The translations under genes and the position numbers were made by a program. A stretch of 64,000 nucleotides of DNA, from positions 1 to 64,000 of the forward strand of contig CANFCG010000006.1 in NCBI GenBank assembly GCA_947445115.1. Direction: 5' to 3'. This document shows positions 20,114 to 56,296 of the stretch, piece after piece. The first letter of the stretch is position 1. Each line of letters begins with the position of its first letter. The stretch is from Comamonadaceae bacterium. GTDB lineage: Bacteria; Pseudomonadota; Gammaproteobacteria; Burkholderiales; Burkholderiaceae_C. The notes below the pieces were generated by a model. The model did not search any database, was not told where the DNA came from, and was given only the letters and a program-made list of their open reading frames with translations.

Positions 20114-21904
20114 TTAGCTCTGCGGCTTGATGATTCCCAATGCCGTATCCGTGTGCAATGCGTCCACTAAATCTGCTCGGTGCGAGAGCACCGCGCGCTG
20201 ATTGATGGACCCCTTATCGGTGATTTCACCCTTGTCGATTGATGGCAACTCTTCCAGCACAATCAGCCGCGCCACACGGCTCGCACTGCCAGTGGACGTT
20301 TTAGCCAGTTCGTTCATCATGTTTTGAAAATGCGCTGATAGCACGGCCTTATCAAGCGCTCTTGCGGCGGGTAGCGGGAAAATCATCGCGCCCACTTCTT
20401 TCATGTTCAAACCCGTAATAACCGCATCTTGAACATAAGGCGCACCCGCCGCAATGATCTTGGCCCGCATGGGGCCAACGCTCACAAACGTGCCTGTCGC
20501 CAGCTTGAAGTCTTCCGCAATGCGGCCATCGAATTTGAGACCTTGATGGATGTCAGCGTCGTCAATCCACTTGACCGCATCGCCTGTGCAGAAGTAGCCT
20601 TCTTCGTCAAACGACTCTTTGGTTGCCTCAGGATTCTTCCAATACCCAGGCGTAATGTTGTCACCCTTGTAGCGAACCTCCACCTTGCCATTGCTAGGCG
20701 CAAGCTTGAGCGTAAGTCCTGCCGTGGGCAATCCCAAATAACCCGCCTTCACGTCTTTGCTCGTCACAAAGAGTCCGAACGGCGAAGACTCCGTCATGCC
20801 AAGCCCTGTTGTCATCACGATGCGTTCGCCAATTTCGCGCTCTTGGCTTTCAAACAAGCTATCCCAAATCGGCTGCGCCAGTGCAGCGCCTGCATAGAAA
20901 AACATCTGTACATTTTTTAGCAATGTTGTGCGCAATTGATCATCTGTTTTCATCGCATTGGCAATGTACTCAAAGCCAGTCGGCACATTTAAATAAATGG
21001 TCGGAGAAATTTCACGCAAATTACGGAATGTCTCCTCAATCAGGGCGGGAGTGGGTTTGCCCTCGTCAATGTAGATCGTTCCGCCGTTGTACATGATGAG
21101 ACCGAAATTGTGATTGCCCGAGAACGTGTGGTTCCACGGCAGCCAATCCACTAGCGTGTGCCAGCCCTCGGCAAGCGCGGGCATAGAGGTGCGCATTTGC
21201 TCTTGGTTGGCACACCACATGCGTTGGGTGTTGATCACCGCTTTAGGCAATTTGGTTGAGCCACTGGTAAACAAAAATTTGACGATGGTGTCGGCATTTG
21301 TCGCAAGCATGGCAGCTTCGACTGCATCGGTTGCAGGCGTTGCCAAAAGTTCGGCAAAACCGTCGTCGATGTAAATGACCTTGGCGTCATTGGCAACCAC
21401 CGCCTCAATCGCCTTGCCGTAGCGTGCTTTGCTTGCTGCAAACACCAAACCTGGTGTGAGCGTGGATAGCACGTGGCGCAATTTTTCAAAATCTTGGCTC
21501 ACCGTGGAATACGCTGGCGATACCGAACAATACGGCACACCCGCATAGATACAGCCCAAGATGAGCTGGGCATGTTCCAAATCGTTATCCGACAAAATCG
21601 CTACGGGACGATCGGCTGAGAGGCCAAGCTGGATAAGGCCTTGCGCAATACGGCGTGCGCCAGCCAAGGCATCACCCCACAGCAAATGTCGCCAGTTGCC
21701 CTTGGTTCCATCCGCATTTCTGACGCGCTGCGCCATAAAGATTTTGTCTGGATTGGCGCGTGCATTAGCCACGAAGCGATCTGTGATGCGCTGGGCATAA
21801 CTCCCAAGCGGTACCGAGCGCAGATATTGCACGCCGCCCTCGCCCGCTGTGACCTCGCCGCTGGTCACGCCAAACTTAAATTCACGATATTTAGGAGTGT
21901 TCAT
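20114..21904 (-). CDS. fcs: feruloyl-CoA synthase
   Basis: 596 aa acyl-adenylate-forming enzyme. The P-loop is FTSGSTKLPKAVINTQRMW, preceded by the long N-terminal region with GVQYLRSVPLGSYAQRITDR typical of feruloyl-CoA synthases. Other blocks are LVDWLPWNHTFSGNHNFGL, TGLGMTESSPFGLF and EEGYFCTGDAVKWID, with the hinge region DGRIAEDFKLATGTFVSVG. It would activate ferulate or p-coumarate with ATP and CoA. It lies 19 nt downstream of the crotonase gene, and the pair forms the core of the operon. Confidence 0.9.
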   Translation of the reverse strand: MNTPKYREFKFGVTSGEVTAGEGGVQYLRSVPLGSYAQRITDRFVANARANPDKIFMAQRVRNADGTKGNWRHLLWGDALAGARRIAQGLIQLGLSADRPVAILSDNDLEHAQLILGCIYAGVPYCSVSPAYSTVSQDFEKLRHVLSTLTPGLVFAASKARYGKAIEAVVANDAKVIYIDDGFAELLATPATDAVEAAMLATNADTIVKFLFTSGSTKLPKAVINTQRMWCANQEQMRTSMPALAEGWHTLVDWLPWNHTFSGNHNFGLIMYNGGTIYIDEGKPTPALIEETFRNLREISPTIYLNVPTGFEYIANAMKTDDQLRTTLLKNVQMFFYAGAALAQPIWDSLFESQEREIGERIVMTTGLGMTESSPFGLFVTSKDVKAGYLGLPTAGLTLKLAPSNGKVEVRYKGDNITPGYWKNPEATKESFDEEGYFCTGDAVKWIDDADIHQGLKFDGRIAEDFKLATGTFVSVGPMRAKIIAAGAPYVQDAVITGLNMKEVGAMIFPLPAARALDKAVLSAHFQNMMNELAKTSTGSASRVARLIVLEELPSIDKGEITDKGSINQRAVLSHRADLVDALHTDTALGIIKPQS

Positions 21905-41462: not shown

Positions 41463-42374
41463 TTACCCCAACACCTTCCCCACGACACTAGCCAATACAT
41501 CCTGCGCCTTTTGCTGCGTCAATGTTGTTGGTCTTTGGCTTGGCCGCACCAGCATCAGTTGACTCATCAATTTTGGTTGCGTAATCGCTCGCACCACAAA
41601 GCTATCTTTTGGGTAATGCGCCAGCGTGTAGCTGGGCAGCACGGCGTGGCCTAGGCCTTCTTGCACAAGGCTCAGAATGGCGTTCAGGCCATCGACTTCC
41701 ATCACGATTTTGGGTTTAACGCCCAGGCGTGTTAGTTCGATGTCTAGCAGTTGCCTAAAGGCATTGGGGCGGCTGGGCAGGATCAAAGGCAAGCGGGACA
41801 AGGCTTGCAGCGTGATACTGCCTGCCGAGTCAATAGTTATAGGCCCTGCAACAGATTCGACTGCACTGGAAATCAGCACCAACGCTTCTTCATGCAATAG
41901 TGTTTGCTCCAAATCCGCGCTGCTAACTGGGTTGTAGAGCAAGGCCATGTCCAAGTTGCCGATGCGCATGCCCTCCAGCATCAGCACCGAAAACCCTTCC
42001 GTGAGTCTGAGCTTCGCCATAGGTAATTCTGCTTGAAACGACTTGGTCAGCGGCACGGTCAGCAACCGCGACAAACTGGGCGGCAAGCCAATGGACACAA
42101 GGCCCGACAGCTCGCCGCGCGCACTACTCAAATCTTCTTTCGCCAGCGCCACCTGATGCAAGATGCCACGCCCGTGCTCCAAGAGGCGCTTGCCCGCCTC
42201 GGTGGGCACCGCGCCGCGCCCGTTGCGCGTGAGCAAGTTTTGCCGCAGCTCCACCTCCAGTAGCCGCAGATGTTTGGAGAGCGCCGGCTGGGTCACGCCT
42301 AGCTGCGAAGCCGCTCGGGTAAAGCTGCCCAGCTCAGCTACGCGGACGAAGTATTCGAGTTGTTTCAAATCCAT
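41463..42374 (-). CDS. LysR family regulator of the protocatechuate cluster
   Basis: 303 aa. The N-terminal helix-turn-helix MDLKQLEYFVRVAELGSFTRAASQLGVTQPALSKHLRLLE is textbook LysR, followed by an effector domain (about 90-295) with VSIGLPPSLSRLL and GLGHAVLPSYTLAH. It is divergent from the ModA-like gene and ligK, with a T-N11-A palindrome between them, and occupies the place of PmdR in Comamonas. The effector would be protocatechuate or a ring-cleavage product (inference). Confidence 0.88.
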   Translation of the reverse strand: MDLKQLEYFVRVAELGSFTRAASQLGVTQPALSKHLRLLEVELRQNLLTRNGRGAVPTEAGKRLLEHGRGILHQVALAKEDLSSARGELSGLVSIGLPPSLSRLLTVPLTKSFQAELPMAKLRLTEGFSVLMLEGMRIGNLDMALLYNPVSSADLEQTLLHEEALVLISSAVESVAGPITIDSAGSITLQALSRLPLILPSRPNAFRQLLDIELTRLGVKPKIVMEVDGLNAILSLVQEGLGHAVLPSYTLAHYPKDSFVVRAITQPKLMSQLMLVRPSQRPTTLTQQKAQDVLASVVGKVLG

Positions 42375-42452: not shown

Positions 42453-43169
42453 ATGCAAACACCGACTCCCACTCTCAAAGGTCTTTCCTCGCTCGCCACT
42501 AAGCATGTGCTGCTGGCTCTTGCCGCGCAATATCAAAATGACTTAGGGACGGTCATCAACGTTGAGACGCTTGGCGGCGTGGACGCAGCCAAGCGCGTGG
42601 CGGAATCAAACACGTCGGGTGAATTGATTGATTTGATATTTTTGGGTTCAGATGCCATAGACAAGCTCATTGCCGCAGGCCATGTCCAGCAAGGCTCGCG
42701 CGTGGACTGGGTGAAGTCAACGGTCGCTATCGCTGTGCGTACAGGCTCCGCCAAGCTAGACATCAACAGCGAAGCGGCCGTACGCGCGGCCGTCGTTGCA
42801 GCACCGTCTATGAGCTATTCCACGGGCCCCAGCGGCGTATACCTAGCCAAGCTGTTCGAGCGCTGGGGCATCGCGGATGTGGTGAATGCAAAACTTGTGC
42901 AAGCCCCGCCAGGCGTGCCTGTGGGCTCTTTGGTGGCGAGCGGAAAAGTAGCACTTGGCTTTCAACAACTGAGCGAATTGCTGGGCATGGACGGTATTGA
43001 TGTGCTCGGCAATTTACCCAATGAGATCGCTTGCATCACAACCTTTTCAAGTGGCATACCCAGCACATGCAGCCCTGCGGCAAGCCAGGCAGCGCGTGGC
43101 CTACAGGCGCATTTAGCATCTAGTCAAACGGAATTTATCAAGCAAAAATACGGCATGTATTGGCACTAA
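42453..43169 (+). CDS. ModA-like substrate-binding-fold protein without signal peptide
   Basis: 238 aa. The fold is that of ModA-type binding proteins: GLSSLATKHVLLALAAQYQN at the start, LIFLGSDAIDKLIAAGHV, PSMSYSTGPSGVYLAKLFERWG, LVQAPPGVPVGSLVASGKVALGFQQ and SELLGMDGIDVLGNLP. The first methionine leads straight into the first strand with no signal sequence, so the protein is probably cytoplasmic. No ABC permease or ATPase accompanies it. As first gene of the lig operon it may be a sensor, a binding protein or an enzyme on this scaffold; the function is unknown. Confidence 0.65.
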   Translation: MQTPTPTLKGLSSLATKHVLLALAAQYQNDLGTVINVETLGGVDAAKRVAESNTSGELIDLIFLGSDAIDKLIAAGHVQQGSRVDWVKSTVAIAVRTGSAKLDINSEAAVRAAVVAAPSMSYSTGPSGVYLAKLFERWGIADVVNAKLVQAPPGVPVGSLVASGKVALGFQQLSELLGMDGIDVLGNLPNEIACITTFSSGIPSTCSPAASQAARGLQAHLASSQTEFIKQKYGMYWH

Positions 43170-43200: not shown

Positions 43201-43893
43201 ATGAACCTCGCAACTACTTTAGGCGTTGTCAAACGCAACATCACCCGCACCGACGCAGCCACTTGCGCCAAACTGGGTAAATACGGCGTCGCCACCGTAC
43301 ACGAAGCGATGGGTCGCATGGGTCTCATGTCGTCCTACATGCGCCCCATCTACAAGAGCGCAAAAATGTGCGGCCCTGCCGTGACCGTACTCTTGCACCC
43401 CGGTGACAACTGGATGATGCACGTGGTGGCGGAGCAAATTCAAAAGGGTGACGTAGTGGTGGCAGCCATGACCTCGCCCAACACGGACGGCTTTTTTGGT
43501 GACCTCTTGGCGACCAGCTTTCAAGCACGCGGTGCAAACGGACTCGTCATTGACGGTGGCTGCCGCGACGTCGCAGAGCTAGAACAGATGGGCTTTCCAG
43601 TCTTCAGCAAAGCCATCAGCGCCAAGGGCACGATCAAGGCAACCATTGGCTCGGTCAATATCCCTGTAATCTGCGCTGGCGCGTTAGTCAACCCAGGCGA
43701 TGTCGTTGTGGCAGATGCTGACGGCGTGGTCGTGGTGCCCGCATCCCTTGCCGCCGCCGTTGCCGATGCCGCCGAAGCACGCGAGGCACTAGAAGGTGAA
43801 AAACGCGCCAAGCTAGCGGCTGGCGTGCTCGGGCTGGACATGTACAACATGCGCGAGCCTTTGGCTAAAGCGGGTTTAAAGTACATTGACTAA
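43201..43893 (+). CDS. ligK: 4-carboxy-4-hydroxy-2-oxoadipate aldolase/oxaloacetate decarboxylase
   Basis: 230 aa RraA-fold class II aldolase. The catalytic Arg122 and metal Asp123 lie in [20 protein letters not shown], and Asp101 in [10 protein letters not shown]. The enzyme cleaves 4-carboxy-4-hydroxy-2-oxoadipate to pyruvate and oxaloacetate, the last step of the 4,5-cleavage pathway, and also decarboxylates oxaloacetate. Called LigK in Sphingobium and PmdF in Comamonas. It is 31 nt downstream of the ModA-like gene and has an AAAGGAAA ribosome site. Confidence 0.93.
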
Positions 43894-43912
43894 AGACTTC
43901 GATTTCAGCAGC

Positions 43913-44788
43913 ATGATGCTCCGCCGCCCTTTCCTAGCAAGCCTTGCCAGCCTTGTCGTCCTGACGACCACACTGGTCGTGGGCTGCGGGACAGCGGTCA
44001 TTCCACAATCGGCAAAACCCGATGCTGCGCTCGTTCAAACGCTTGCGCCCACGGGCACGCTGCGCATTGGCGTGTACAAGGGCAGTCCTAGCTCGCTAGT
44101 CACGGCGGCTGACGGCACAACGGCTGGCGTGGCGCACGACGTGGGGCAATCGATGGCGAAGCAGCTGGGCGTGCCTGCGCAAGTCGTCGTCTTTGACCGC
44201 ATTGCACTGGTACTTGAAGCTTTGAAAGCTGGGCAGATCGACATGACGTTTACCAACGCCTCGCCTGCGCGGCAGCGCGAGTTTGCGTTTTCTCAGCCCA
44301 TGCTGAGCGTGGAGCTGGGCTATCTGGTTCCCGCCAATGGCAAACTGCAAAACATCGACCATGCGGATGCAGGAATGCGCATCGGCGTTTCTCAAGGCAG
44401 CAGCTCGCAAGCCTCACTAGGTGAGGCCTTCAAGGCAAGCAAGCTCACAGCCTTTGCTAGTCTTGACCTAGCGAAGACCGCCTTGCGCAATAACGATATT
44501 GATGCGTTTGCGACCAATAAGGGGATCTTGAATGAACTCTTGGACGACTTAAATAAAAGCGACGAAAGCGGCACTCAAAAGCTGTCTTACAAAATTTTGG
44601 ACGGCCGCTGGGGCTATGAGCACATGGGCATTGCCATCCCGCTTGAGCGAGCATTGAAATCCTCAGCCGCTGTGGCTTTTGTGGGTGGTCTTGGTCGCAA
44701 ATTAAAAGCTTCTGGTGAGCTAACCAAGATGGCAGAACGCGCAGGGCTGCGCGGCACAGTGAATGTTGATATTGGAGGCATGAAATGA
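43913..44788 (+). CDS. ABC-type periplasmic solute-binding lipoprotein (PF00497), orphan
   Basis: About 291 aa. ATG 43913 (or 43916) gives a lipoprotein signal ending in VVGC. The mature domain is an amino-acid-type binding protein: LRIGVYKGSPSSLV, GVAHDVGQSMAKQLGV, LKAGQIDMTFTNASPARQREFAFSQP and VSQGSSSQASLGEAF. No permease or ATPase gene of that class is nearby. An in-frame TTG at 43886 inside ligK would put a polar leader before the signal and is less likely. Its stop overlaps the next Bug gene as ATGA. A ring-acid or keto-acid ligand is plausible from context. Confidence 0.8.
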   Translation: MMLRRPFLASLASLVVLTTTLVVGCGTAVIPQSAKPDAALVQTLAPTGTLRIGVYKGSPSSLVTAADGTTAGVAHDVGQSMAKQLGVPAQVVVFDRIALVLEALKAGQIDMTFTNASPARQREFAFSQPMLSVELGYLVPANGKLQNIDHADAGMRIGVSQGSSSQASLGEAFKASKLTAFASLDLAKTALRNNDIDAFATNKGILNELLDDLNKSDESGTQKLSYKILDGRWGYEHMGIAIPLERALKSSAAVAFVGGLGRKLKASGELTKMAERAGLRGTVNVDIGGMK

Positions 44789-45750
44789 ATTTTCTTAAAT
44801 GGCTGATCGCGGCTACAAGTACGGCAGCATTTGCGCTGTCAGTCTCAGCACAAACCTATCCCGCTAAGCCCGTCAAAATCGTCGTCGGTTATGCCGCTGG
44901 CGGTGCGGTCGACTTGGTCGCCCGTGCCGTGGGACAAGGCTTGCAAGCGAACATGGGGCAAACGTTTGTGATTGAGAACAAACCCGGCGCGGGCACCAAC
45001 ATCGCGGTCAAATCGGTGATTGACGCACCCGCCGACGGCTACACGATGCTGATGGCGGCGAACGCGCTTGCCGTAAACATGGCGCTCTACTCACCCGCGC
45101 CATTTGATGCAGAACGTGACCTAGTCGCCGTGTCACTCATAGGCCGCGTGCCTGTGGTGATTGCCGCGAATGTGAACGCGCCGTACGCCAACGTGCAAGC
45201 GCTTATCGCCGCTGCCAAGGGCAAACCCAACACCATCGCCTACGGCAGCCCCGGCAACGGATCAACCCCGCACATGGCACTGGAACTCTTTGCACGCGCC
45301 GCGGGCATTTACCTGCAGCACATTCCGTACAAAGGCGGCTCGCAGGCGATTACCGACGTGCTGGGTGGACAATTGCCGCTGGTCGCAGTGAATGCGCTGG
45401 AAGCCTTACCGCAAGTCAAAGCAGGCAAGCTCAAAGTGCTGGCAGTGCTCAGCCCAAAGCGCAGCGCCATCTTCCCCGACGTGCCAACCATTGCGGAGTC
45501 TGGCTTTGCTGGATTTGAAGCGTCCGTCTGGTACGGCCTAGTAGCACCTGCCGCCACGCCAAAAGATATCGTCGCCAAGCTGCACCTAGAGGTGCAAAAA
45601 GTGCTGCAAACCAAAGAGTTGAAAGACCGAATGTCGGCTGCGGGCGGCGAAGTGATTCCAGCCAGTAGTGAAGCGTTTGGTGCGCTGATTAAATCTGAGC
45701 GGGCTCGCTATGCGAAGCTTGTAAAAGATGCGGGAATTAAGCCCGATTAA
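44785..45750 (+). CDS. Bug-family tripartite tricarboxylate transporter receptor
   Basis: 321 aa. A signal peptide (AFALSVSAQ) is followed by PVKIVVGYAAGGAVDLVAR, VIENKPGAGTNIAVK, IAYGSPGNGSTPHMALELF, LQHIPYKGGSQAITDVLGGQLP and FPDVPTIAESGFAGFEASVWYG, a complete Bug protein. It is coupled (ATGA) to the preceding solute-binding lipoprotein and 24 nt before ligI, so it is co-transcribed with the lig genes. Likely ligands are protocatechuate, its precursors or pathway acids (inference). Confidence 0.93.
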   Translation: MNFLKWLIAATSTAAFALSVSAQTYPAKPVKIVVGYAAGGAVDLVARAVGQGLQANMGQTFVIENKPGAGTNIAVKSVIDAPADGYTMLMAANALAVNMALYSPAPFDAERDLVAVSLIGRVPVVIAANVNAPYANVQALIAAAKGKPNTIAYGSPGNGSTPHMALELFARAAGIYLQHIPYKGGSQAITDVLGGQLPLVAVNALEALPQVKAGKLKVLAVLSPKRSAIFPDVPTIAESGFAGFEASVWYGLVAPAATPKDIVAKLHLEVQKVLQTKELKDRMSAAGGEVIPASSEAFGALIKSERARYAKLVKDAGIKPD

Positions 45751-45774: not shown

Positions 45775-46698
45775 ATGAGCAAACCAACAACCGGTGATTT
45801 CACCAAAACAACAGGCTGGATGGACTGGTACACAGGTCCTGCCAAACCGACATTCAAGCTGCCCGCGGGCGCAGTCGATGCGCATTGCCACGTCTTTGGA
45901 CCTGGCGCGGAGTTCCCCTACGCGCCCGAGCGCAAGTACACGCCTTGCGACGCGAGCAAGGCCGAGCTTTTTGCGCTGCGCGATCATTTGGGTTTTGACA
46001 AAAACGTGATCGTGCAAGCCACATGCCACGGCGCAGACAACCGTGCGATGGTCGATGCGCTCAAAGCCAGCAATGGCAAGGCTCGCGGCATTGCGACCGT
46101 CAAGCGTTCGGTGACTGACGAGGAAATTCAAGCGTTGCACGATGCAGGCGTGCGCGGTGTGCGCTTTAATTTTGTGAAGCGTCTTGTGGACTCTACGCCG
46201 CGCGATGAGCTCTTAGAAATTGCCACGCGCATCAAAAAATGGAACTGGCAAGTGGTCATTTATTTTGAAGCCGTGGACTTGCCTGAGCTGTGGGATTTCT
46301 TTGCCTCTTTGCCTACCACTCTGGTGGTCGATCACATGGGCACGCCCAACGTGAGCAAACCAGCCGATGGCCCCGAGTTTGAACTCTTCGTTAAATTTAT
46401 GCGCGAGCATAAAAATGTGTGGAGCAAAGTGACTTGTCCTGAGCGCTTATCCGTCAGCGGCCCTGCTGCTTTGAACGGCGAACAAAATGCGTACACGGAT
46501 GTGATCCCGTTCGCCAAGCGTCTTGTCGAGGAGTTCCCCGACCGCGTGATTTGGGGCACCGATTGGCCACATCCCAATTTGAAAAAACACATGCCAGATG
46601 ATGGCTTGCTCGTTGACTTCATCCCGCATATCGCGCCTACCAAAGAGCTGCAGCAAAAGCTGTTGGTGGACAACCCGATGCGCCTGTATTGGAGCTAA
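45775..46698 (+). CDS. ligI: 2-pyrone-4,6-dicarboxylate hydrolase
   Basis: 307 aa amidohydrolase. VDAHCHVFGPG (Asp35, His37, His39) is the LigI start of the barrel; RKYTPCDAS, RFNFVKRLVD, VVDHMGTPN and VIWGTDWPHPN with the catalytic Asp follow. The enzyme opens the lactone made by LigC to give 4-oxalomesaconate. Unlike most of the superfamily LigI works without metal. It is followed within 2 nt by the pirin gene. Confidence 0.94.
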   Translation: MSKPTTGDFTKTTGWMDWYTGPAKPTFKLPAGAVDAHCHVFGPGAEFPYAPERKYTPCDASKAELFALRDHLGFDKNVIVQATCHGADNRAMVDALKASNGKARGIATVKRSVTDEEIQALHDAGVRGVRFNFVKRLVDSTPRDELLEIATRIKKWNWQVVIYFEAVDLPELWDFFASLPTTLVVDHMGTPNVSKPADGPEFELFVKFMREHKNVWSKVTCPERLSVSGPAALNGEQNAYTDVIPFAKRLVEEFPDRVIWGTDWPHPNLKKHMPDDGLLVDFIPHIAPTKELQQKLLVDNPMRLYWS

Positions 46699-46700
46699 GC

Positions 46701-47615
46701 ATGACCGCCAAATCCATCATCCGCATTGACTCCGCTCCGCCGCGCCACTGGGTCGGCGACGGCTTTCACGTGCACAGCATGTTTAGCTACAACCAAGATG
46801 CCCACCTGTACAGCCCGTTTTTGATGCTGGACTATGGCGCGCCGTACCTGTGCGAGCCGCGTGATGTAGCGAGTGGCGCAACCCCACGCGGCGTGGGCTC
46901 GCACCCGCACCGCGGCTTCGAAACAGTGACGATTGCCTACAGCGGCGAAGTCGCGCACCGCGACTCATCGGGCGGCGGAGGCATCATTGGCGTGGGTGAT
47001 GTGCAGTGGATGACCGCTGGCAGCGGCCTCGTACACGACGAGTTCCACTCCCCCGCGTTTAGCCAAGCGGGCGGCATGATGCACATGGTGCAGCTGTGGG
47101 TGAATCTGCCAGCCAAAGACAAAATGACGAAGCCTGGCTATCAAGCGATTAAAAATAACGATATCCCCAAAGCCGCTATCCCAGAGGCCACAGTGGATGG
47201 GGCTTCTGTGCGCATCATCGCGGGAAACCATAGCGGACAAAGCCTAGCGGGCAGCATCATTACAAAAGGTGCTGCTAGTACATTCACCCCCATGAATGTG
47301 TGGGACGTGCGCATCCACGCAGGACAAACCGTTTCGCTACCGCAGCCCGAGGGCTGGACGACGCTGCTGCTCGTGCAAAGCGGCAAGGTCACGGCGAATA
47401 ACGGCAAGGCGGCTGGTGCGGCGCAGCTGGTCATGCTGTCGCGCAGCGGGACCGAGGTGTCGATCACGGCATTCGAGGACACGCAATTGCTTTTGCTGGC
47501 AGGCGAGCCGATCAACGAGCCTGTGGTCGGCTACGGCCCGTTTGTGATGAATACGCGGCAAGAAATTCTGCAGGCGGTTGAGGACTTCAACGCTGGCAAG
47601 TTTGGGCAAATTTAA
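46701..47615 (+). CDS. pirin family cupin protein
   Basis: 304 aa. Pirin marks: HVHSMFSYNQDAHLYSPFLMLDYG, the metal site SHPHRGFETVTIAYSGEVAHRDS with three histidines, GSGLVHDEFHS supplying the glutamate, and a C-terminal cupin half with LAGEPINEPVVGYGPFVMNT. Some pirins act as quercetin dioxygenases, others bind transcription factors. Placement between ligI and ligA within 2 and 14 nt indicates co-expression with protocatechuate cleavage, hinting at an oxygenase or stress role there (inference). ATG 46701 is chosen over an upstream TTG. Confidence 0.9.
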   Translation: MTAKSIIRIDSAPPRHWVGDGFHVHSMFSYNQDAHLYSPFLMLDYGAPYLCEPRDVASGATPRGVGSHPHRGFETVTIAYSGEVAHRDSSGGGGIIGVGDVQWMTAGSGLVHDEFHSPAFSQAGGMMHMVQLWVNLPAKDKMTKPGYQAIKNNDIPKAAIPEATVDGASVRIIAGNHSGQSLAGSIITKGAASTFTPMNVWDVRIHAGQTVSLPQPEGWTTLLLVQSGKVTANNGKAAGAAQLVMLSRSGTEVSITAFEDTQLLLLAGEPINEPVVGYGPFVMNTRQEILQAVEDFNAGKFGQI

Positions 47616-47629
47616 CTAGAAGGAAACTT

Positions 47630-48975
<1,346 letters not shown>

Positions 48976-48995: not shown

Positions 48996-49952
48996 ATGAG
49001 CAAAACCATCAAAGTCGCCTTGGCTGGCGCAGGCGCCTTCGGCATCAAGCATTTAGACGGCATCAAAAATATTGACGGCGTGGAAGTGGTCTCGTTGATT
49101 AGCCGTGACCTAGAAAAAACCAAAGAAGTTGCGGACAAATACGGCATCAAACACATCACCACCGATTTGAACGAGTCCCTTGCGCTCAAAGAAGTCGATG
49201 CCGTGATTTTGTGCACGCCCACGCAAATGCACGCCGATCAAACCACAGCGTGTTTGAAAGCGGGCAAGCATGTGCAAGTGGAGATTCCGCTGTGCGACAT
49301 CTACGCCGAAGGCCAAGCGGTAGCAAACCTCGCCAAGAGCAGTGGGCTGGTGGCGATGTGCGGTCACACGCGCCGCTTTAACCCTAGTCACCAGTACGTA
49401 CACAACAAAATCAAAGCTGGCGAATTCAACATTCAACAAATGGATGTGCAAACGTATTTCTTCCGCCGCACCAACATGAATGCGCTGGGGCAAGCGCGTA
49501 GCTGGACGGATCATTTGCTGTGGCATCACGCCGCGCACACCGTAGATTTGTTTGCGTACCAGGCGGGCAGCCCCATCGCGCGCGCCAACGCCGTGCAAGG
49601 CCCGATTCATCCTGCGCTTGGCATTGCGATGGATATGAGTATTCAACTGCAAGCGGCGAACGGTGCCATCTGCACGCTCTCGCTCTCGTTCAACAACGAT
49701 GGCCCGCTCGGCACGTATTTCCGCTACATCGGCGACACGGGCACGTACCTTGCGCGTTACGACGATCTGTTTACGGGCAAAGAGGAAAAGATTGATGTGA
49801 GCCAAGTGGCTGTGTCGATGAACGGCATCGAACTACAAGACCGCGAGTTCTTTGCAGCTATCAAGGAAGGCCGTGAGCCCAATAGCAGTGTGGCTTCCGT
49901 ACTGGACTGCTACCGCGTACTGCACGATTTAGAGCAGCAACTAAACGCTTAA
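48996..49952 (+). CDS. ligC: 4-carboxy-2-hydroxymuconate-6-semialdehyde dehydrogenase
   Basis: 318 aa Gfo/Idh/MocA fold. N-terminal NAD(P) loop VALAGAGAFGIKHLDGIKNI, CTPTQMHADQTTACLKAGKHVQVEIPLCD and LWHHAAHTVDLFAYQ are characteristic of LigC/PmdC. It oxidises the hemiacetal of the ring-cleavage product to 2-pyrone-4,6-dicarboxylate, the substrate of LigI. It lies 20 nt after ligB. Confidence 0.94.
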   Translation: MSKTIKVALAGAGAFGIKHLDGIKNIDGVEVVSLISRDLEKTKEVADKYGIKHITTDLNESLALKEVDAVILCTPTQMHADQTTACLKAGKHVQVEIPLCDIYAEGQAVANLAKSSGLVAMCGHTRRFNPSHQYVHNKIKAGEFNIQQMDVQTYFFRRTNMNALGQARSWTDHLLWHHAAHTVDLFAYQAGSPIARANAVQGPIHPALGIAMDMSIQLQAANGAICTLSLSFNNDGPLGTYFRYIGDTGTYLARYDDLFTGKEEKIDVSQVAVSMNGIELQDREFFAAIKEGREPNSSVASVLDCYRVLHDLEQQLNA

Positions 49953-50965: not shown

Positions 50966-51073
50966 TGGGGTCTATCCCCGTACTTACCCTTGTGCAAAAA
51001 ACCTCGTTGGCGACTTGGGCTTTGGTACAGTAGCGACTGGTCAAATTTAACATTAATATTATTTGGAATCATC

Positions 51074-52246
51074 ATGAAAAAACGCGTTCTTTTATCCGCC
51101 ATTGCGGCTGCCAGTTTGCTAGCAGCATCACCCTTCAGCTTCGCCGCTGATGACACCTTCAAAATCGGTTTGATTCTCCCGATGACGGGTCAGCAAGCCT
51201 CCACAGGCAAGCAAATTGCTGCGGCCGCGCATCTCTACATGGCGCAAAACGGCAGCACCGTCGCGGGCAAAAAAATTGAGCTCATCATCAAAGATGACGC
51301 CGCCACACCTGACGTGACCAAGCGCCTCGCACAGGAGCTCATCGTGAACGACAAGGTCAACGTCATTGGAGGCTTTGGCGTGACGCCGGCGGCACTGGCA
51401 GCCGCCCCCATTGCGACGCAATCGAAAACACCCATGGTTGTGATGGCCGCCGCAACCTCCATCATTACGCAGGCCTCGCCCTACATTGTCCGCACCAGTT
51501 TTACGTTGCCCCAAGCCGCAGTAGCGATGGGCGATTGGGCACCTAAAAATGGCATCAAAAAAGTGGTGACCTTAGTCAGCGATTACGGCCCTGGCATTGA
51601 TGCGGAAAAATTCTTCAAAGAACGATTGATTTTTAACGGCGGCCAAGTCGTAGAGGCGCTTCGCGTACCACTGCGCAGCCCCGACTTTGCGCCCTTCTTG
51701 CAAAAAGTTCGTGATTTAAAACCCGATGCGCTCTTTGTTTTTGTGCCGTCTGGCGCAGGTGCGGCAGTGATGAAGCAGTTTTTAGAGCGCGGCATGGACA
51801 AAGCCGGCATCAAGCTGATTGGCACTGGCGACGTGACTGATGACGACCAATTGAACGACATGGGCGATGGCGCGCTTGGCGTGGTGACTTCGCACCACTA
51901 CTCGGCTTCGCACAACTCGGCTACCAACAAAAAGTTTGTCGCCGCATTTGAAGCCGCCAACAAGGGCATGCGCCCCAACTTTATGGCAGTCGGTGGCTAC
52001 GACGGCATGCGCGTGATTTACGAAGCTTTGAAGGCCACTAAGGGCAAAGGCACGGGCGACGACTTACTGGCTGCCATGAAGGGCCAAATTTTTGAAAGTC
52101 CGCGCGGCCCCATGTTCATCGATGCGCAAACCCGTGACGTGGTGCAAAACATCTATATCCGCAAAGTGGAGAAGGTCGGTGGCAAACTGTACAACACGGA
52201 ATTTGACACACTCAAAGACGTGAAAGATCCAGGCAAGGCGAAGTAA
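51074..52246 (+). CDS. livK: ABC transporter substrate-binding protein (LivK family)
   Basis: 390 aa. A signal peptide (LLSAIAAASLLAASPFSFAA) precedes a type I fold: DTFKIGLILPMTGQQASTGKQI, IELIIKDDAATPDVTKRLAQEL, VIGGFGVTPAALAAAPIATQ and RPNFMAVGGYDGMRVIYEAL. ATG 51074 (MKKRVLLS) sets the signal peptide; the longer frame from 50990 has no such start. It heads the livK-H-M-G-F-dsbA run, 108 nt after the lig operon, and may carry aromatic acids for that pathway (inference). Confidence 0.93.
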   Translation: MKKRVLLSAIAAASLLAASPFSFAADDTFKIGLILPMTGQQASTGKQIAAAAHLYMAQNGSTVAGKKIELIIKDDAATPDVTKRLAQELIVNDKVNVIGGFGVTPAALAAAPIATQSKTPMVVMAAATSIITQASPYIVRTSFTLPQAAVAMGDWAPKNGIKKVVTLVSDYGPGIDAEKFFKERLIFNGGQVVEALRVPLRSPDFAPFLQKVRDLKPDALFVFVPSGAGAAVMKQFLERGMDKAGIKLIGTGDVTDDDQLNDMGDGALGVVTSHHYSASHNSATNKKFVAAFEAANKGMRPNFMAVGGYDGMRVIYEALKATKGKGTGDDLLAAMKGQIFESPRGPMFIDAQTRDVVQNIYIRKVEKVGGKLYNTEFDTLKDVKDPGKAK

Positions 52247-52248
52247 CA

Positions 52249-53121
52249 ATGCTGACCATCCTATTTGACGGCGTTGCCTATGGGATGCTGCTGTTTATCC
52301 TAGCCGTCGGCCTCGCCGTGACGATGGGGTTGATGAATTTCATCAACCTAGCGCACGGTGCGTTTGCCATGGTGGGCGGTTACATCACTGTGCTGCTTAT
52401 GCAAAAAATGGGCGTGCCCTTTTTGTGGTGCTTACCTTTGTCGTTTTTAGGTAGCGCCTTGCTAGGTGCGGTTCTGGAGTTCACGCTCTATCGACGTTTG
52501 TATGGCAAACCGCATCTCGATCAAGTGCTGTTCTCGATCGGCCTGGTATTTATGGCGGTCGCCAGCACCGACTACTTTATTGGCAGCACGCTGCAGATCA
52601 TGCAGTTGCCCGAATTTTTGAAAGGCCGAACCGAGCTTTGGGCTGACACGCCTTTTATGCTGGGCATGGGGCATTACCGTTTATTCATCATCATCGTTTG
52701 TGCCTTGCTGACTGTGGCGTTACAGTCCGTGCTCTCCAAAACTCGCTTTGGTAGCCGCTTGCGTGCCGCGGTGGACGACCAGCGCGTGGCGGCGGGACTT
52801 GGCATCAATGTGAATATCGTCTTCCTCGCGACATTCGCGGTAGGCTCTGGCCTTGCGGGTCTTGGCGGGGCGCTGGGCGCCGAAGTGCTAGGACTCGATC
52901 CCACCTTTCCACTCAAGTTTATGGTGTACTTTTTAATCGTCGTGGCGGTTGGCGGAACCACATCCATCACGGGGCCCTTGCTGGCTGCGTTGTTGCTGGG
53001 CATTGCAGATGTGGCGGGCAAATACTACATCCCCAAAATGGGCGCGTTTACCGTTTATGCCTTGATGATTGCGATTTTGATTTGGCGTCCACAAGGACTG
53101 TTCTCGCGGGGTAGTAAATGA
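52249..53121 (+). CDS. livH: branched-chain-type ABC transporter permease LivH
   Basis: 290 aa membrane protein. GVAYGMLLFILAVGLAVTMGLMNFINLAHGAFAMVGGY is the LivH N-terminus; GSRLRAAVDDQRVAAGLGIN and the late LIVVAVGGTTSITGPLLAALLLG complete it. It starts 2 nt after livK and overlaps livM by ATGA. Confidence 0.94.
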   Translation: MLTILFDGVAYGMLLFILAVGLAVTMGLMNFINLAHGAFAMVGGYITVLLMQKMGVPFLWCLPLSFLGSALLGAVLEFTLYRRLYGKPHLDQVLFSIGLVFMAVASTDYFIGSTLQIMQLPEFLKGRTELWADTPFMLGMGHYRLFIIIVCALLTVALQSVLSKTRFGSRLRAAVDDQRVAAGLGINVNIVFLATFAVGSGLAGLGGALGAEVLGLDPTFPLKFMVYFLIVVAVGGTTSITGPLLAALLLGIADVAGKYYIPKMGAFTVYALMIAILIWRPQGLFSRGSK

Positions 53122-54134
53122 CAACGGCCATCGAATCCACTTTGCAGCGTGATAGTCGCGTCAAAAAATGGGAGCCTCTGGTTTGGTTGCTCGCATTTGC
53201 TTCGCCGCTCTTGCTGCCCAGCCACTCCCTGCTCATCAGCGAAATCGCCATTACTGCACTTTTTGCCATGTCGCTTGATTTAATTCTGGGCTATACGGGC
53301 ATCGTCTCTTTAGGACATGCGGCCTTTTTTGGCATGGGAGCGTACAGTGCGGCTATTTTTGCCAAACTCGTGATGCCCGATCCGCTGGTTGGTTTGCTGG
53401 CAGCCATCCTGCTCGCAACCCTTTTGGGCGCTGCTTGCAGTTTCACTATCCAGCGTGGCTCAGACCTCACACGGCTGATGGTCACGCTCGGCGTGGGATT
53501 GCTGCTCTATGAAGCCGCCAACAAACTAGACTGGCTCACAGGCGGTGCAGACGGCCTGCAAGGCGTCTTAATGGCGCCTGTGCTGGGTCTCTTTGAATTT
53601 GATTTGAATGGAAAAACCGCGGCCTGGTATGCCCTCGTCATCGCCAGTCTCTTCTTTGTCTTGTTGCGTCGCTGGGTTCATTCGCCATTTGGCGCGGGGC
53701 TGAAGGCGATTCGCGATAACCGCCTCCGCGCCGCCAGCATTGGCATTCATGTCAGCCGCCAAATCGCCATCATCTATACGCTGGCAGCGGGCGTAGCAGG
53801 CGCAGCAGGCGCACTGTTCGCACAAACCACAGGGTTTGCCTCGCTTGACGTGTTTGCTTTTGACCGCTCAGCGGACTTGATGCTGATGCTCGTCATCGGT
53901 GGTACCGGTTGGTTATGGGGCGGTATCGCTGGTGCGGTGGTCTTCAAATTACTGCATACCGTGATTTCTAATATCACACCGCAATATTGGACATTTTGGA
54001 TTGGACTTTTTTTGGTTGTGCTGGTAATGGTAGGACGCGAACGGCTGCTTAGTCCCAAAACTTGGTTTGGCAAAAAAAGCATGGATTCCCGCCTTTGCGG
54101 GAATGACAAGCGTGAGGGCAATGCGCATGAGTAA
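53118..54134 (+). CDS. livM: ABC transporter permease LivM with repeat-derived C-terminal tail
   Basis: 338 aa. LivM blocks: LDLILGYTGIVSLGHAAFFGMGAYS, FTIQRGSDLTRLMVTLGVG, GLKAIRDNRLRAASIG and VIGGTGWLWGGIAGAVVF. The natural protein seems to end near RERLLSPKTWFGKK. The last 20 or so residues (SMDSRLCGNDKREG...) are encoded by a copy of the window's palindromic repeat at 54083-54107, and the reading frame then runs into the start of livG. The tail is probably cytoplasmic. ATGA overlap joins it to livH. Confidence 0.92.
   Translation: MTTAIESTLQRDSRVKKWEPLVWLLAFASPLLLPSHSLLISEIAITALFAMSLDLILGYTGIVSLGHAAFFGMGAYSAAIFAKLVMPDPLVGLLAAILLATLLGAACSFTIQRGSDLTRLMVTLGVGLLLYEAANKLDWLTGGADGLQGVLMAPVLGLFEFDLNGKTAAWYALVIASLFFVLLRRWVHSPFGAGLKAIRDNRLRAASIGIHVSRQIAIIYTLAAGVAGAAGALFAQTTGFASLDVFAFDRSADLMLMLVIGGTGWLWGGIAGAVVFKLLHTVISNITPQYWTFWIGLFLVVLVMVGRERLLSPKTWFGKKSMDSRLCGNDKREGNAHE
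54083..54107. repeat. palindromic dispersed repeat, copy 4, inside livM
   Basis: Perfect inverted repeat ATTCCCGC-CTTT-GCGGGAAT at 54085-54104, GG before and GAC after. It lies in the last codons of livM, where it is translated as MDSRLCGND, and ends 20 nt before the livG start. Confidence 0.85.
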
Positions 54135-54924
54135 TGTCGTTCTCAGTTGCAAGGGGCTAATTAAACGCTTTGGCGGTATCACCGCCACGGACAACGTCAC
54201 GTTTGAGTTAAAGCAAGGCGCACGTCACGCGTTGATTGGCCCTAATGGGGCAGGCAAAACAACGCTCATCAATTTGCTGACGGGCGTGCTGGAACCCACC
54301 AGCGGCAGCATTCAATTGCAAGGCGTTGACATCAGTCGACTGGCCCAGCACGAGCGGGTGCGGCGTGGCATGGTGCGTACGTTTCAAATTAATCAGTTGT
54401 TTGATACGTTCACACCTTTGCAAACACTGGCGATGGTCGTGTCGCAAACACAAGGTCTTGGCAGCAAGTGGTGGCACGCCATTGGCTCGCAAGCCTTATC
54501 CAGCCAGCCCGCGCACCGTACTGCCGTGACCGAGCGATGCTTGGAGTTACTCACGCAATTTCATTTGCTGGAGGTCATGGATCAGCCCACCAAGCTGCTG
54601 GCTTATGGCAAACGGCGCTTGCTAGAAATCGCCATTGCGCTTGCTTGTAACCCCAAGGTGCTGCTGCTCGATGAGCCCGTCGCTGGTGTACCTGCCGGCG
54701 AACGCGAAGAGTTGCTGCAAACCGTGGGCGCGTTACCCGCCGATGTGTCTATTCTTTTAATTGAACACGATATGGATTTGGTATTTGAATTTGCCACGCG
54801 CATCACGGTACTGGTCAATGGCGCGGTACTGACGGAAGGTACGCCCGACGTCATTGCGAACGACCCGCAAGTCAAAGCCGTGTATCTCGGGCATTCGCTG
54901 GATGCAGCACAAGGGAGCCATTGA
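54127..54924 (+). CDS. livG: ABC transporter ATPase LivG
   Basis: 265 aa. Walker A GPNGAGKTTL, VRRGMVRTFQINQLF, signature KLLAYGKRRLLEIAIAL (LivG-type, not LSGGQ) and Walker B LLLDEPVAGVPAGE. ATG 54127 gives MSNVVLSCKGLIKRFGG; ATG 54121 is an alternative. The frame extends upstream to 54067, but that part (KAWIPAFAGMTS) is translated repeat and is rejected as coding. It overlaps livM by 8 nt and touches livF through TGATG. Confidence 0.93.
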   Translation: MSNVVLSCKGLIKRFGGITATDNVTFELKQGARHALIGPNGAGKTTLINLLTGVLEPTSGSIQLQGVDISRLAQHERVRRGMVRTFQINQLFDTFTPLQTLAMVVSQTQGLGSKWWHAIGSQALSSQPAHRTAVTERCLELLTQFHLLEVMDQPTKLLAYGKRRLLEIAIALACNPKVLLLDEPVAGVPAGEREELLQTVGALPADVSILLIEHDMDLVFEFATRITVLVNGAVLTEGTPDVIANDPQVKAVYLGHSLDAAQGSH

Positions 54925-55628
54925 TGCGCGCCTTACTTCAAGTAGAAAACGTCAGCGCAGGTTACGGCGAAGCGGTTGTTTTAACTGACATCAGCCTCGC
55001 CATCAACGCCGGCGAAACGCTAGCGCTGCTGGGCCGTAATGGCACAGGCAAGACCACGCTCATCAATACATTGGCGGGCGCGACGCGTCAGCATGCGGGC
55101 CGCATCACCTTATCTGGCGTGGCTTTGCACACACTCAAGGCACACGAACGAGCAGCGGCGGGCATTGGCTGGGTACCGCAAGAGCGCAATATTTTTAAAT
55201 CACTCACGGTGCACGAAAACCTGACAGCCGTGGCGCGTGCGGGGCACTGGACACCCGAGCGCGTGTACGACATGTTTCCGCGTTTAGCCGAGCGCAAGAC
55301 CAATATGGGCACGCAGCTTTCGGGCGGCGAGCAGCAAATGTTGGCGCTGGGCCGTGCGCTGGTACTCAATCCAAAGCTGTTGCTGTTAGACGAGCCGCTA
55401 GAAGGCCTCGCGCCCATCATTGTCGAAGAGCTTTTGGCTGCTATCGCCCGTATCACCAGGGACGAGGGGATGAGCGCCATCATCGTGGAGCAGCATCCTC
55501 AAGCGATTTTAAAAATTTCTCACACAGCTGTCGTCCTCGATCACGGTACGGTGGTACACGCTAGTCGTGCGGACGAGTTGCTGAAGCAGCCTGAACGCTT
55601 AGACAAATTATTAGGAGTAGCACGATGA
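54924..55628 (+). CDS. livF: ABC transporter ATPase LivF
   Basis: 234 aa. Walker A GRNGTGKTTLI, GIGWVPQERNIFKSLTVHENL, signature LSGGEQQMLALGRAL and Walker B LLLDEPLEGLAPI, as in LivF. ATG 54924 shares its A with the livG stop (TGATG). An in-frame TTG at 54921 is possible but less likely. Its stop overlaps the DsbA-family gene by ATGA. Confidence 0.94.
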   Translation: MRALLQVENVSAGYGEAVVLTDISLAINAGETLALLGRNGTGKTTLINTLAGATRQHAGRITLSGVALHTLKAHERAAAGIGWVPQERNIFKSLTVHENLTAVARAGHWTPERVYDMFPRLAERKTNMGTQLSGGEQQMLALGRALVLNPKLLLLDEPLEGLAPIIVEELLAAIARITRDEGMSAIIVEQHPQAILKISHTAVVLDHGTVVHASRADELLKQPERLDKLLGVAR

Positions 55629-56296
55629 AAATCGATTTTGTCTCCGACGTCGCCTGTCCATGGTGTGCTGTGGGGCTTGGGGCCTTAGAGCAAGCACTGG
55701 CGCATTTGGCGCTGACTAACCCCAGCATCAAAACTGAGATTCACTTTCAGCCGTTTCAGCTCAACCCCGATATGCCACCCGAGGGGCAAGACATTGGCGA
55801 GCATCTCTCGCAAAAATATGGTTCGACTGCGGCTCAGCAAGAGCAGACCTACGCCATGATTCGGGCGCGCGGTGCGGAGGTGGGATTTGATTTCAGGCTA
55901 GGCGGTCGTGGGCGTACTTGGAACACCCTCGATTGCCATCGCCTGCTGCACTGGGCGAGCGAATTAGGGAATGACAAAGACGACGTGAGCATCCAGCACA
56001 AGATGAAAAAAGAGATGCTCAAAAGCTATTTCACCGACGGTAAAAATCCAGCTGCTCGCACCACCTTGCTGGATCTCGTGACCCGCATGGGGCTAGATGC
56101 AACAAGGGCTGCCGCGATATTGGACAGTGATGAATACACTGCCGAGGTTCGCGCACGCCAGCGTTTTTATCACTCGCAAGAGATTCATTCTGTGCCTGCC
56201 GTCATCATTAACGACAGACATCTCATTTCAGGCGGTCAGCCCGCTGCTGTGTTTGAAAATGCGCTGCGACAAATAGCGAGTCAAGCACGAGGCTAA
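55625..56296 (+). CDS. DsbA-family (FrnE-type) oxidoreductase
   Basis: 223 aa without signal peptide. The CPWC redox site is in MKIDFVSDVACPWCAVGLGAL, then FQPFQLNPDMPPEGQDI, TWNTLDCHRLLHWA and VPAVIINDRHLISGGQP with the cis-proline. This is the FrnE branch of cytoplasmic DsbA/HCCA isomerase-like proteins. It is coupled to livF by ATGA, so it belongs to the transporter operon. It may be a thiol oxidoreductase or a glutathione-dependent isomerase acting on an aromatic intermediate; the second is only suggested by context. Confidence 0.88.
   Translation: MKIDFVSDVACPWCAVGLGALEQALAHLALTNPSIKTEIHFQPFQLNPDMPPEGQDIGEHLSQKYGSTAAQQEQTYAMIRARGAEVGFDFRLGGRGRTWNTLDCHRLLHWASELGNDKDDVSIQHKMKKEMLKSYFTDGKNPAARTTLLDLVTRMGLDATRAAAILDSDEYTAEVRARQRFYHSQEIHSVPAVIINDRHLISGGQPAAVFENALRQIASQARG

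What the first reader, a model, noticed from the sequence alone, without database searches (positions are those of the whole stretch)
42453..43169. Cytoplasmic ModA-like protein as first gene of the protocatechuate 4,5-cleavage operon
The protein has the fold marks of a periplasmic binding protein but no signal peptide and no ABC partner, and it precedes ligK by 31 nt. The lig cluster lacks a recognisable 4-oxalomesaconate tautomerase and hydratase. A binding-protein scaffold working as an intracellular sensor, chaperone or even an enzyme of the missing step would be new. The enzyme idea is speculation.
Basis: partly seen in the sequence, partly recalled or inferred. Interest (0 to 1): 0.55.

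Follow-up and report, generated by a model that had tools for sequence, protein, structure and literature searches.

The report
Binding-protein-fold isomerase for protocatechuate breakdown
A gene that databases label as a nutrient-binding or molybdate-transport protein is most likely an enzyme inside the cell that carries out a key step in breaking down lignin-derived protocatechuate and gallate, standing in for an unrelated enzyme that other bacteria use.

Summary
In detail: 42453-43169 encodes a 238-aa protein with the ModA fold and no signal peptide, first gene of a protocatechuate 4,5-cleavage operon. Its most likely role is the 4-oxalomesaconate (OMA) isomerase ("tautomerase") step, replacing the unrelated PrpF-family LigU/GalD. 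Of 150 genomes of the same family 93 have LigK: 82 carry this gene (here "ModL"), 8 carry LigU in the same slot before LigJ-LigK, none both; 49 of the 82 have no PrpF-family match. On a LigJ-LigK tree of 96 clusters LigU and ModL change at least 8 times. In a genus of 53 genomes 28 have ModL, 20 a LigU-type gene, none both. Gallate clusters with only gallate dioxygenase, LigJ, LigK and ModL pin the step. The "missing" hydratase LigJ is elsewhere in this genome; LigU was not found. Caution: a Comamonas record has ModL where pmdU lies in the pmdUKEFDABC operon (order recalled), so the step is probably already known genetically as PmdU (Kamimura 2010, not readable here). What may be new is the ModA fold of the enzyme, its transport-like annotation, and its repeated exchange with LigU. 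No assay supports it yet.

The parts
42453..43169 (+). ModL: ModA-fold protein without signal peptide (SBP_bac_11), proposed 4-oxalomesaconate isomerase; probably PmdU orthologue
   Evidence: complementarity with LigU; tree
41463..42374 (-). LysR-type regulator, divergent from the operon
   Evidence: beside ModL in many relatives
43201..43893 (+). [quoted passage not shown]
   Evidence: TIGR02798 391.5 bits, cut-off 304.5
43886..44788 (+). SBP_bac_3 solute-binding-like protein, overlaps the ligK stop; role unknown
   Evidence: similar proteins in 5 of 140 loci
44785..45750 (+). TctC-type binding protein of tripartite tricarboxylate transporters
   Evidence: PF03401 238.8 bits
45775..46698 (+). 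LigI, 2-pyrone-4,6-dicarboxylate hydrolase (amidohydrolase)
   Evidence: PF04909; conserved position in lig clusters; function name recalled
46689..47615 (+). pirin-family protein inside the operon
   Evidence: homologue in 2 of 140 loci
47630..48070 (+). LigA, protocatechuate 4,5-dioxygenase alpha
   Evidence: TIGR02792 207.4 bits, cut-off 108.6
48073..48975 (+). [quoted passage not shown]
   Evidence: NF009903 532.3 bits, cut-off 317
48996..49952 (+). LigC, CHMS dehydrogenase (Gfo/Idh/MocA)
   Evidence: PF19858, PF01408; homologue in L270 matches PDB 9azo PmdC

Best explanation
ModL is a soluble cytoplasmic enzyme built on the ModA (type II periplasmic-binding-protein) fold. It binds 4-oxalomesaconate, the tricarboxylate made from 2-pyrone-4,6-dicarboxylate by LigI or directly from gallate by gallate dioxygenase, in the cleft between its two lobes, and moves a proton so that the double bond shifts (OMA to 2-keto-4-carboxy-3-hexenedioate, KCH), giving the substrate of the LigJ hydratase; LigK then cleaves the hydrated product. 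It is a non-homologous replacement of LigU/GalD. Shown here: predicted fold, absence of a signal peptide, co-occurrence, same-slot exchange with LigU, presence in gallate clusters. Inferred: the catalytic activity, the double-bond chemistry, and the cleft residues (the invariant S13, R48, S123, S127, Q171, Q172, E175 are candidates only).
For: (1) Phyletic complementarity: of 93 LigK+ genomes among 150 of the family, 82 have ModL (>=134 bits), 8 have LigU 1.06-1.42 kb upstream of LigK, 0 have both, 3 neither by these criteria; one of the 3, G014, has a divergent ModL next to LigK. 3 of 57 LigK-negative genomes have ModL, all fragmented drafts that do have LigA. 49 of the 82 have no PF04303 match. 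(2) Same slot: LysR-ModL-LigJ-LigK-LigI-LigA-LigB-LigC against LysR-LigU-LigJ-LigK-LigI-LigA-LigB-LigC as the commonest orders. (3) At least 8 changes between LigU and ModL on a LigJ+LigK tree of 96 clusters; starred branches force 7 for the LigU label. (4) One genus, 53 genomes: ModL 28, LigU-type PF04303 20, both 0, neither 5. (5) ModL is kept in 19 genomes where its locus shows no lig gene and no neighbour shared by more than 3 of 24 such loci. (6) Gallate clusters of Burkholderia, Caballeronia and Paraburkholderia hold gallate dioxygenase, LigJ, LigK and ModL without LigI/LigC in the stretch read, leaving the OMA isomerisation unassigned; a genome of another family of the order has LigU before LigJ-LigK in such a cluster (L300). 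(7) Arthrobacter/Pseudarthrobacter plasmid operons have LigJ, LigK, LigI, LigAB, LigC and ModL, with no LigU match; a Streptomyces plasmid is similar (L201). (8) The LigU used here is PrpF family with best PDB match (4E)-oxalomesaconate Delta-isomerase and shows no significant alignment to ModL.
Against: No assay, no mutant, no ligand. Genomes are related, so the Fisher p-values (7e-26, 2e-9, 3e-10) overstate independence. 24 of the 82 ModL+ LigK+ genomes hold an unlinked PrpF-family gene of LigU-like score; the 21 such genes fetched, from 18 of the 24 genomes, are 29-58% identical to LigU and 19 of 21 lie near a TctC-type gene, but a LigU-like activity of theirs is not excluded. G132 and G095 have LigJ-LigK with neither gene (G095's contig ends there, G132's cluster shows no LigAB). 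In the phylum sample 9 further LigK+ PrpF-negative genomes (8 of one family, 1 other) hold only weaker ModA-like relatives (130-194 bits); in the 6 of their LigK clusters read there was no LigAB, and no LigJ in 5: they neither help nor refute. One plasmid gallate cluster (L313) has a ModL-type gene lacking two of the signature motifs and no LigK in the stretch. In the genus test neither LigK nor the position of the LigU-type hits was checked, save for G115 and G318.
Confidence: 0.87

Rival explanations
1. It is a cytoplasmic sensor or chaperone: it binds OMA or another pathway intermediate and modulates the LysR regulator or a pathway enzyme, but does not catalyse.
For: Binding-protein fold; divergent LysR gene next door in the window and many relatives.
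Against: One-for-one exchange with the isomerase LigU, none with both; kept in clusters with and without the neighbouring LysR and in 19 genomes away from lig genes; otherwise 49 of 82 genomes would have no PrpF-family enzyme for the step.
Confidence: 0.06
2. It is an ordinary molybdate or tricarboxylate binding protein of a transporter (the reading in databases and in the Sphe3 paper, 'ABC-type molybdate transport system').
For: PF13531 and ModA fold; named so as pcaT in PMC8431788 (figure legend) and 'substrate-binding domain-containing protein' in plasmid records.
Against: No signal peptide in the window protein nor an obvious one in 8 annotated plasmid members; no ModB/ModC among the window genes scanned; aligned ModA ligand positions differ (Tyr170 to Gln, Ser39 to Gly; alignment, ModA ligand residues recalled).
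Confidence: 0.03
3. The OMA step runs without an enzyme or with an unrelated unknown enzyme in these bacteria; ModL has some other pathway role and the exclusion with LigU reflects two ancestral operon types.
For: No biochemical data here; genomes of a family share history.
Against: Operon types would be inherited as blocks, but LigU and ModL alternate at least 8 times on the tree of the neighbouring LigJ-LigK genes, within one genus, and in gallate as well as protocatechuate clusters.
Confidence: 0.04

Closest known systems
PmdU of Comamonas sp. E6 (pmdUKEFDABC operon; Kamimura et al. 2010, recalled, not read)
   Same: A Comamonas record (L270) has ModL, MFS transporter, LigJ, LigK, LigI, LigA, LigB, LigC in the recalled pmd order with ModL at U; first gene of the operon in both; recalled as needed for the OMA tautomer step.
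   Different: The window operon has no MFS gene at that place and has ligJ on another contig.
LigU / GalD, (4E)-oxalomesaconate Delta-isomerase (PrpF family)
   Same: Same proposed reaction, same slot before LigJ-LigK, same pathways.
   Different: No significant sequence alignment and a different family (PF04303 against PF13531); about 230 aa against about 350 aa.
ModA molybdate-binding proteins
   Same: Fold, Z about 21-24, 14-19% identity; PF13531.
   Different: No signal peptide, no ModBC found, other residues at aligned ligand positions.
Aconitate isomerase of Pseudomonas sp. WU-0701 (recalled as ModA-like; title seen in reference lists only)
   Same: Precedent, if recall is right, for a ModA-like protein doing allylic isomerisation of a tricarboxylate; the aconitate isomerases TarA and TbrA are PrpF superfamily (PMC11495376 passages), the same pair of families as ModL and LigU.
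   Different: Recalled as periplasmic; its sequence was not compared. ModL has its own signature (SSMAT, GGVD, STGPSG, QQxSE).

Membership tests
SBP_bac_11 / ModA-like proteins (PF13531) | Match to the Pfam model | tested here: met
   123.5 bits, cut-off 25
SBP_bac_11 / ModA-like proteins (PF13531) | ModA-type two-lobed fold | tested here: met
   AlphaFold pLDDT 96.3; 1wod Z 23.9
Periplasmic molybdate-binding protein ModA | Export signal | tested here: not met
   In-frame stop 10 codons upstream, protein starts at the first strand. The crude hydropathy score alone does not separate: the secreted TctC control scored 1.81, equal to the maximum of 75 family members; the window protein scored 1.57
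Periplasmic molybdate-binding protein ModA | Partner permease and ATPase (ModB, ModC) | tested here: not met
   None among 28 window ORFs scanned; no neighbour shared by more than 3 of 24 unlinked loci
Periplasmic molybdate-binding protein ModA | Oxyanion-ligand residues | tested here: inconclusive
   Profile alignment puts Gly at Ser39 and Gln at Tyr170 of E. coli ModA; ligand residues recalled, binding not measured
LigU/GalD (PrpF family, PF04303) | Sequence homology | tested here: not met
   No significant alignment; different Pfam families
LigU/GalD (works like) | Occupies the isomerase slot and excludes LigU | tested here: met
LigU/GalD (works like) | OMA isomerase activity | not testable with these tools
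   needs an enzyme assay
PmdU | First gene of the pmd operon, before the transporter and PmdE in Comamonas (order recalled) | tested here: met
   L270, uncultured Comamonas; a homologue of its MFS gene follows ModL in 8 of 8 loci L314-L321 of genus g115
PmdU | Sequence identity with E6 PmdU | not tested
   paper and the accession tried are not held
ModA-like aconitate isomerase | Same clade as the WU-0701 enzyme | not tested
   sequence not available; relation recalled only

The most novel reading that the evidence does not exclude
A whole branch of ModA-fold proteins are not transport proteins but isomerases of unsaturated tricarboxylates. The cytoplasmic ModL subfamily (signature SSMAT / GGVD / STGPSG / QQxSE) catalyses OMA isomerisation in protocatechuate and gallate breakdown in Burkholderiales, some Alphaproteobacteria and Actinobacteria, and has been exchanged with PrpF-family LigU many times in the same gene slot: two unrelated folds trading one reaction, mirrored by two families of aconitate isomerase.
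Probability: 0.6. Interest if true: 0.68.

Novelty: new variant of a known kind. Interest (0 to 1): 0.55.

Why it matters
It closes an apparent hole in the protocatechuate/gallate pathway of many genomes (49 of 82 ModL-type genomes have no PrpF-family match), corrects an annotation that reads 'molybdate transport' or 'substrate-binding', and offers a clean case of repeated one-for-one exchange of two unrelated proteins in one gene slot. It makes a family of binding-protein-fold enzymes testable, of use for engineering lignin or PET monomer use. If PmdU proves to be this protein, the step is already assigned genetically and the new part is the fold, its spread and the exchange with LigU.

Tried and rejected
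Hydratase role for ModL: rejected, LigJ is in the genome and beside ModL in most relatives read. An earlier start with signal peptide: rejected. Molybdate transport: see rivals. A wider test in Pseudomonadota: of the 63 LigK+ genomes tabulated (72 in all; 9 were already in the family sample) 52 have a PF04303 match at E <= 1e-40 and the other 11 all have a ModA-like match at E <= 1e-25. This looked perfect, but 9 of the 11 have only weaker relatives; in the 6 of these 9 that were fetched the ModA-like gene had no lig gene near it and the LigK cluster had no LigAB. Not counted as support. In that sample 16 LigK+ genomes outside the family show a PF04303 gene within 1 kb of LigK in the rows printed; the listing was cut, so the full number is unknown. 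Literature for PmdU's identity and for an earlier assignment of a ModA-like OMA isomerase: searches listed none that I saw stating it; only listings and passages were read and the library lacks most subscription papers, so this is no proof of novelty. The second structure job was not used. No known isomerase appeared among the 50 rows of the fold comparison, which is no evidence against one.

Rows dropped: one search used 66 relatives of the 83, chosen by length 224-245 aa, complete ends, ATG start and identity above 41.3%, plus the window protein. One search left out three truncated and five near-duplicate loci. One search used clusters with LigJ of at least 250 and LigK of at least 170 residues (96 rows, 1 with neither gene). 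The count of 82 uses a 134-bit cut; G014 falls below it though adjacent to LigK. Two of the 21 genomes first called 'ModL elsewhere' (G142, G016) in fact have ModL beside LigJ at a contig end or beside LigI-LigABC, hence 19.

Full report
WHAT IS THERE. The window gene 42453-43169 (+) encodes 238 aa and ends 31 nt before ligK; a LysR gene diverges from it. Pfam gives only SBP_bac_11. Downstream follow LigK, an SBP_bac_3 protein, a TctC-type binding protein, LigI, pirin, LigA, LigB, LigC. The AlphaFold model (67-row alignment, mean pLDDT 96.3) has the ModA fold (1wod Z 23.9, 224 residues, 14% identity). The frame opens only 10 codons before the ATG.

THE GENOME. The held genome is 2.34 Mb in 59 contigs, 97% complete. 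PrpF family (LigU/GalD): no match. LigJ: present on contig C31, a 348-aa protein whose best PDB match is 4-oxalomesaconate hydratase 2gwg. So the operon lacks two enzymes, but the genome lacks only the isomerase. Three weaker paralogues of the gene exist in the genome: one with a hydrophobic leader on C32, two close together on C24.

CO-OCCURRENCE IN THE FAMILY. The same 150 genomes were searched for ModL, PF04303, LigK and LigA. LigK: 93 of 150. Of these, 61 have ModL (>=134 bits) within 25 kb of LigK, 60 of them on the same strand and upstream (the other, G063, is 19 kb away on the other strand); 21 have ModL elsewhere or on another contig; 8 have a PF04303 gene 1.06-1.42 kb upstream of LigK on the same strand and no such ModL; G014 has a divergent ModL next to LigK; G095 and G132 have neither. 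LigK-negative: 3 of 57 have ModL, all drafts with LigA. Both genes: 0 of 93. 49 of the 82 ModL+ LigK+ genomes have no PF04303 match. 24 of the 82 hold an unlinked PF04303 gene in the LigU score range; 21 such genes from 18 of the 24 genomes were fetched: they are 29-58% identical to the LigU reference and 19 of 21 lie near a TctC-type gene, whereas the LigU of seven other lig clusters is 71-76% identical to it, and 55% in L133, whose LigB-type gene is of the gallate kind.

NEIGHBOURHOODS. 140 loci were fetched, 118 of them around LigK or ModL, and read with tblastn. The common order is LysR-ModL-LigJ-LigK-(TctC)-LigI-LigA-LigB-LigC; with LigU in the same place it is LysR-LigU-LigJ-LigK-LigI-LigA-LigB-LigC. 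The three genomes of the window's genus (G000, G027, G140) lack LigJ between ModL and LigK. Of the 21 'elsewhere' genomes two have ModL beside other lig genes (G142 at a contig end, G016); in the other 19 the ModL locus shows no lig gene, and no neighbouring gene family is shared by more than 3 of 24 such loci, so it is kept for its function rather than by linkage. The best 80 GTDB loci (Rhodoferax, Polaromonas, Acidovorax, Hydrogenophaga, Variovorax and others) have LigJ in 66, LigK in 55 and LigU in 0 of 80 at 150 bits; 13 have neither LigJ nor LigK in the stretch held, in part because contigs end.

EXCHANGE ON A TREE. A LigJ+LigK tree of 96 clusters (65 ModL in cluster, 21 ModL elsewhere, 9 LigU, 1 none) needs at least 8 changes between LigU and ModL; starred branches force at least 7 for the LigU label, which is about as scattered as under shuffling (mean 8.7, as low in 116 of 500). 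The tree is a quick one and some rows are long. In one genus (that of G115, 53 genomes) ModL of the main clade (>=315 bits) is in 28, a LigU-type PF04303 gene (303-335 bits) in 20, both in 0, neither in 5, three of these five under 90% complete. LigK and gene position were not checked there except for G115 and G318 (PF04303 gene 2.6 kb upstream of LigK in G318).

WHICH STEP. Gallate clusters decide. Gallate dioxygenase makes OMA directly, so LigI and LigC are not needed (established pathway; PMC12314914 passage). Caballeronia sp. Lep1P3 has gallate dioxygenase, MFS transporter, LigJ (76% to the window genome's LigJ), LigK, ModL and then unrelated genes; Paraburkholderia largidicola, Burkholderia multivorans and B. 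pyrrocinia are alike. One genome of another family of the order has LigU before LigJ-LigK in such a cluster (L300). What is left for ModL is OMA isomerisation. A further plasmid (L313) has LigJ, gallate dioxygenase and a ModL-type gene that lacks two signature motifs, with no LigK in the stretch. In Arthrobacter keyseri pRE1 and Pseudarthrobacter Sphe3 the operon is LigJ, LigK, LigI, fused LigAB, LigC, aldo/keto reductase, ModL; the Sphe3 paper labels this gene pcaT, 'ABC-type molybdate transport system', and reports the PCA 4,5 genes as one transcriptional unit (PMC8431788: abstract, section 2.1 and a figure legend seen).

SEQUENCE SIGNS. In 160 aligned ModL rows S13, A15, G42, R48, D60, S123, G125, P126, S127, G128, G154, V157, Q171, Q172, E175, P189 and F198 do not vary. 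The signature SSMAT / GGVD / STGPSG / QQxSE marks ModL, with small changes also in Actinobacteria and Methylobacterium; the paralogues tabulated differ in the other loops, and all but one (L297) keep Q-x-[ST]-E. Of 8 annotated plasmid proteins 6 have SSMAT, 8 STGPSG and 7 QQxSE. Against E. coli ModA the profile puts Gly at Ser39, Ser at Ala125, Gly at Val152 and Gln at Tyr170 (that these bind molybdate is recalled).

WHAT IS ALREADY KNOWN. LigU/GalD as OMA isomerase/tautomerase is established (PDB 6p3h, 6p3j, 6p3k, '(4E)-oxalomesaconate Delta-isomerase'; PMC12314914 passages). The operon of Comamonas sp. E6 is recalled as pmdUKEFDABC with pmdU reported in 2010 as a new pathway gene; the paper is not held, only its title was seen in reference lists. 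An uncultured Comamonas record carries ModL, an MFS transporter, LigJ, LigK, LigI, LigA, LigB, LigC in that order (L270), its LigC matches PmdC (PDB 9azo), and in 8 of 8 ModL loci fetched from genus g115 a homologue of that MFS gene follows ModL. In C. testosteroni KF-1 PmdK is PD1893 and PD1895 is discussed as the PmdF counterpart (PMC10154247 passages), which leaves the place before PmdK for pmdU. I therefore think it about 80% likely that PmdU is ModL, so the function would be known genetically while its fold and its relation to LigU are overlooked in annotation. The precedent of a ModA-like aconitate isomerase (Pseudomonas sp. WU-0701) is recalled; only its title was seen. TarA and TbrA, other aconitate isomerases, are PrpF superfamily (PMC11495376 passages).

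LIMITS. All evidence is comparative. Relatedness inflates p-values. Activity, ligand and catalytic residues are untested.

Noticed in passing
G000:C24:19955-20572 and 21348-21716 (L003, L004); G000:C32:785-1456 (L002): Three ModA-like paralogues in the same genome: one with a hydrophobic leader near a TctC-type gene (C32), one between a TctC-type gene and a lipB-like gene with no clear leader, one beyond that gene. They keep Q-x-[ST]-E but not the ModL loops; candidates for other tricarboxylate isomerases.
   Followed up: partly
L286-L295, L303, L304 (family f56): ModA-like proteins of about 230 aa (32-38% identical to ModL; five of six with signature STLxL/SRGASG/QQISE) in genomes whose LigK lies with a LigI-like amidohydrolase but without LigJ or LigAB in the stretch: another possible pathway variant.
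   Followed up: partly
window 43886-44788: SBP_bac_3 protein whose TTG start overlaps the ligK stop, with a Cys after a hydrophobic leader; similar proteins in L082, L089, L100, L128 and L142. Role unknown.
   Followed up: no
window 46689-47615: Pirin-family gene between ligI and ligA; among the loci compared a homologue was found only in L142 and L144.
   Followed up: no
window 50990-56296: Branched-chain-type ABC transporter (binding protein, two permeases, two ATPases) followed by a DSBA-like gene, downstream of ligC; possibly aromatic-acid uptake.
   Followed up: no
   Followed up: partly
L138 (G132) and L065 (G016): LigJ-LigK with a TctC-type gene but no LigAB in the stretch: a further cluster type of unknown substrate.
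   Followed up: no
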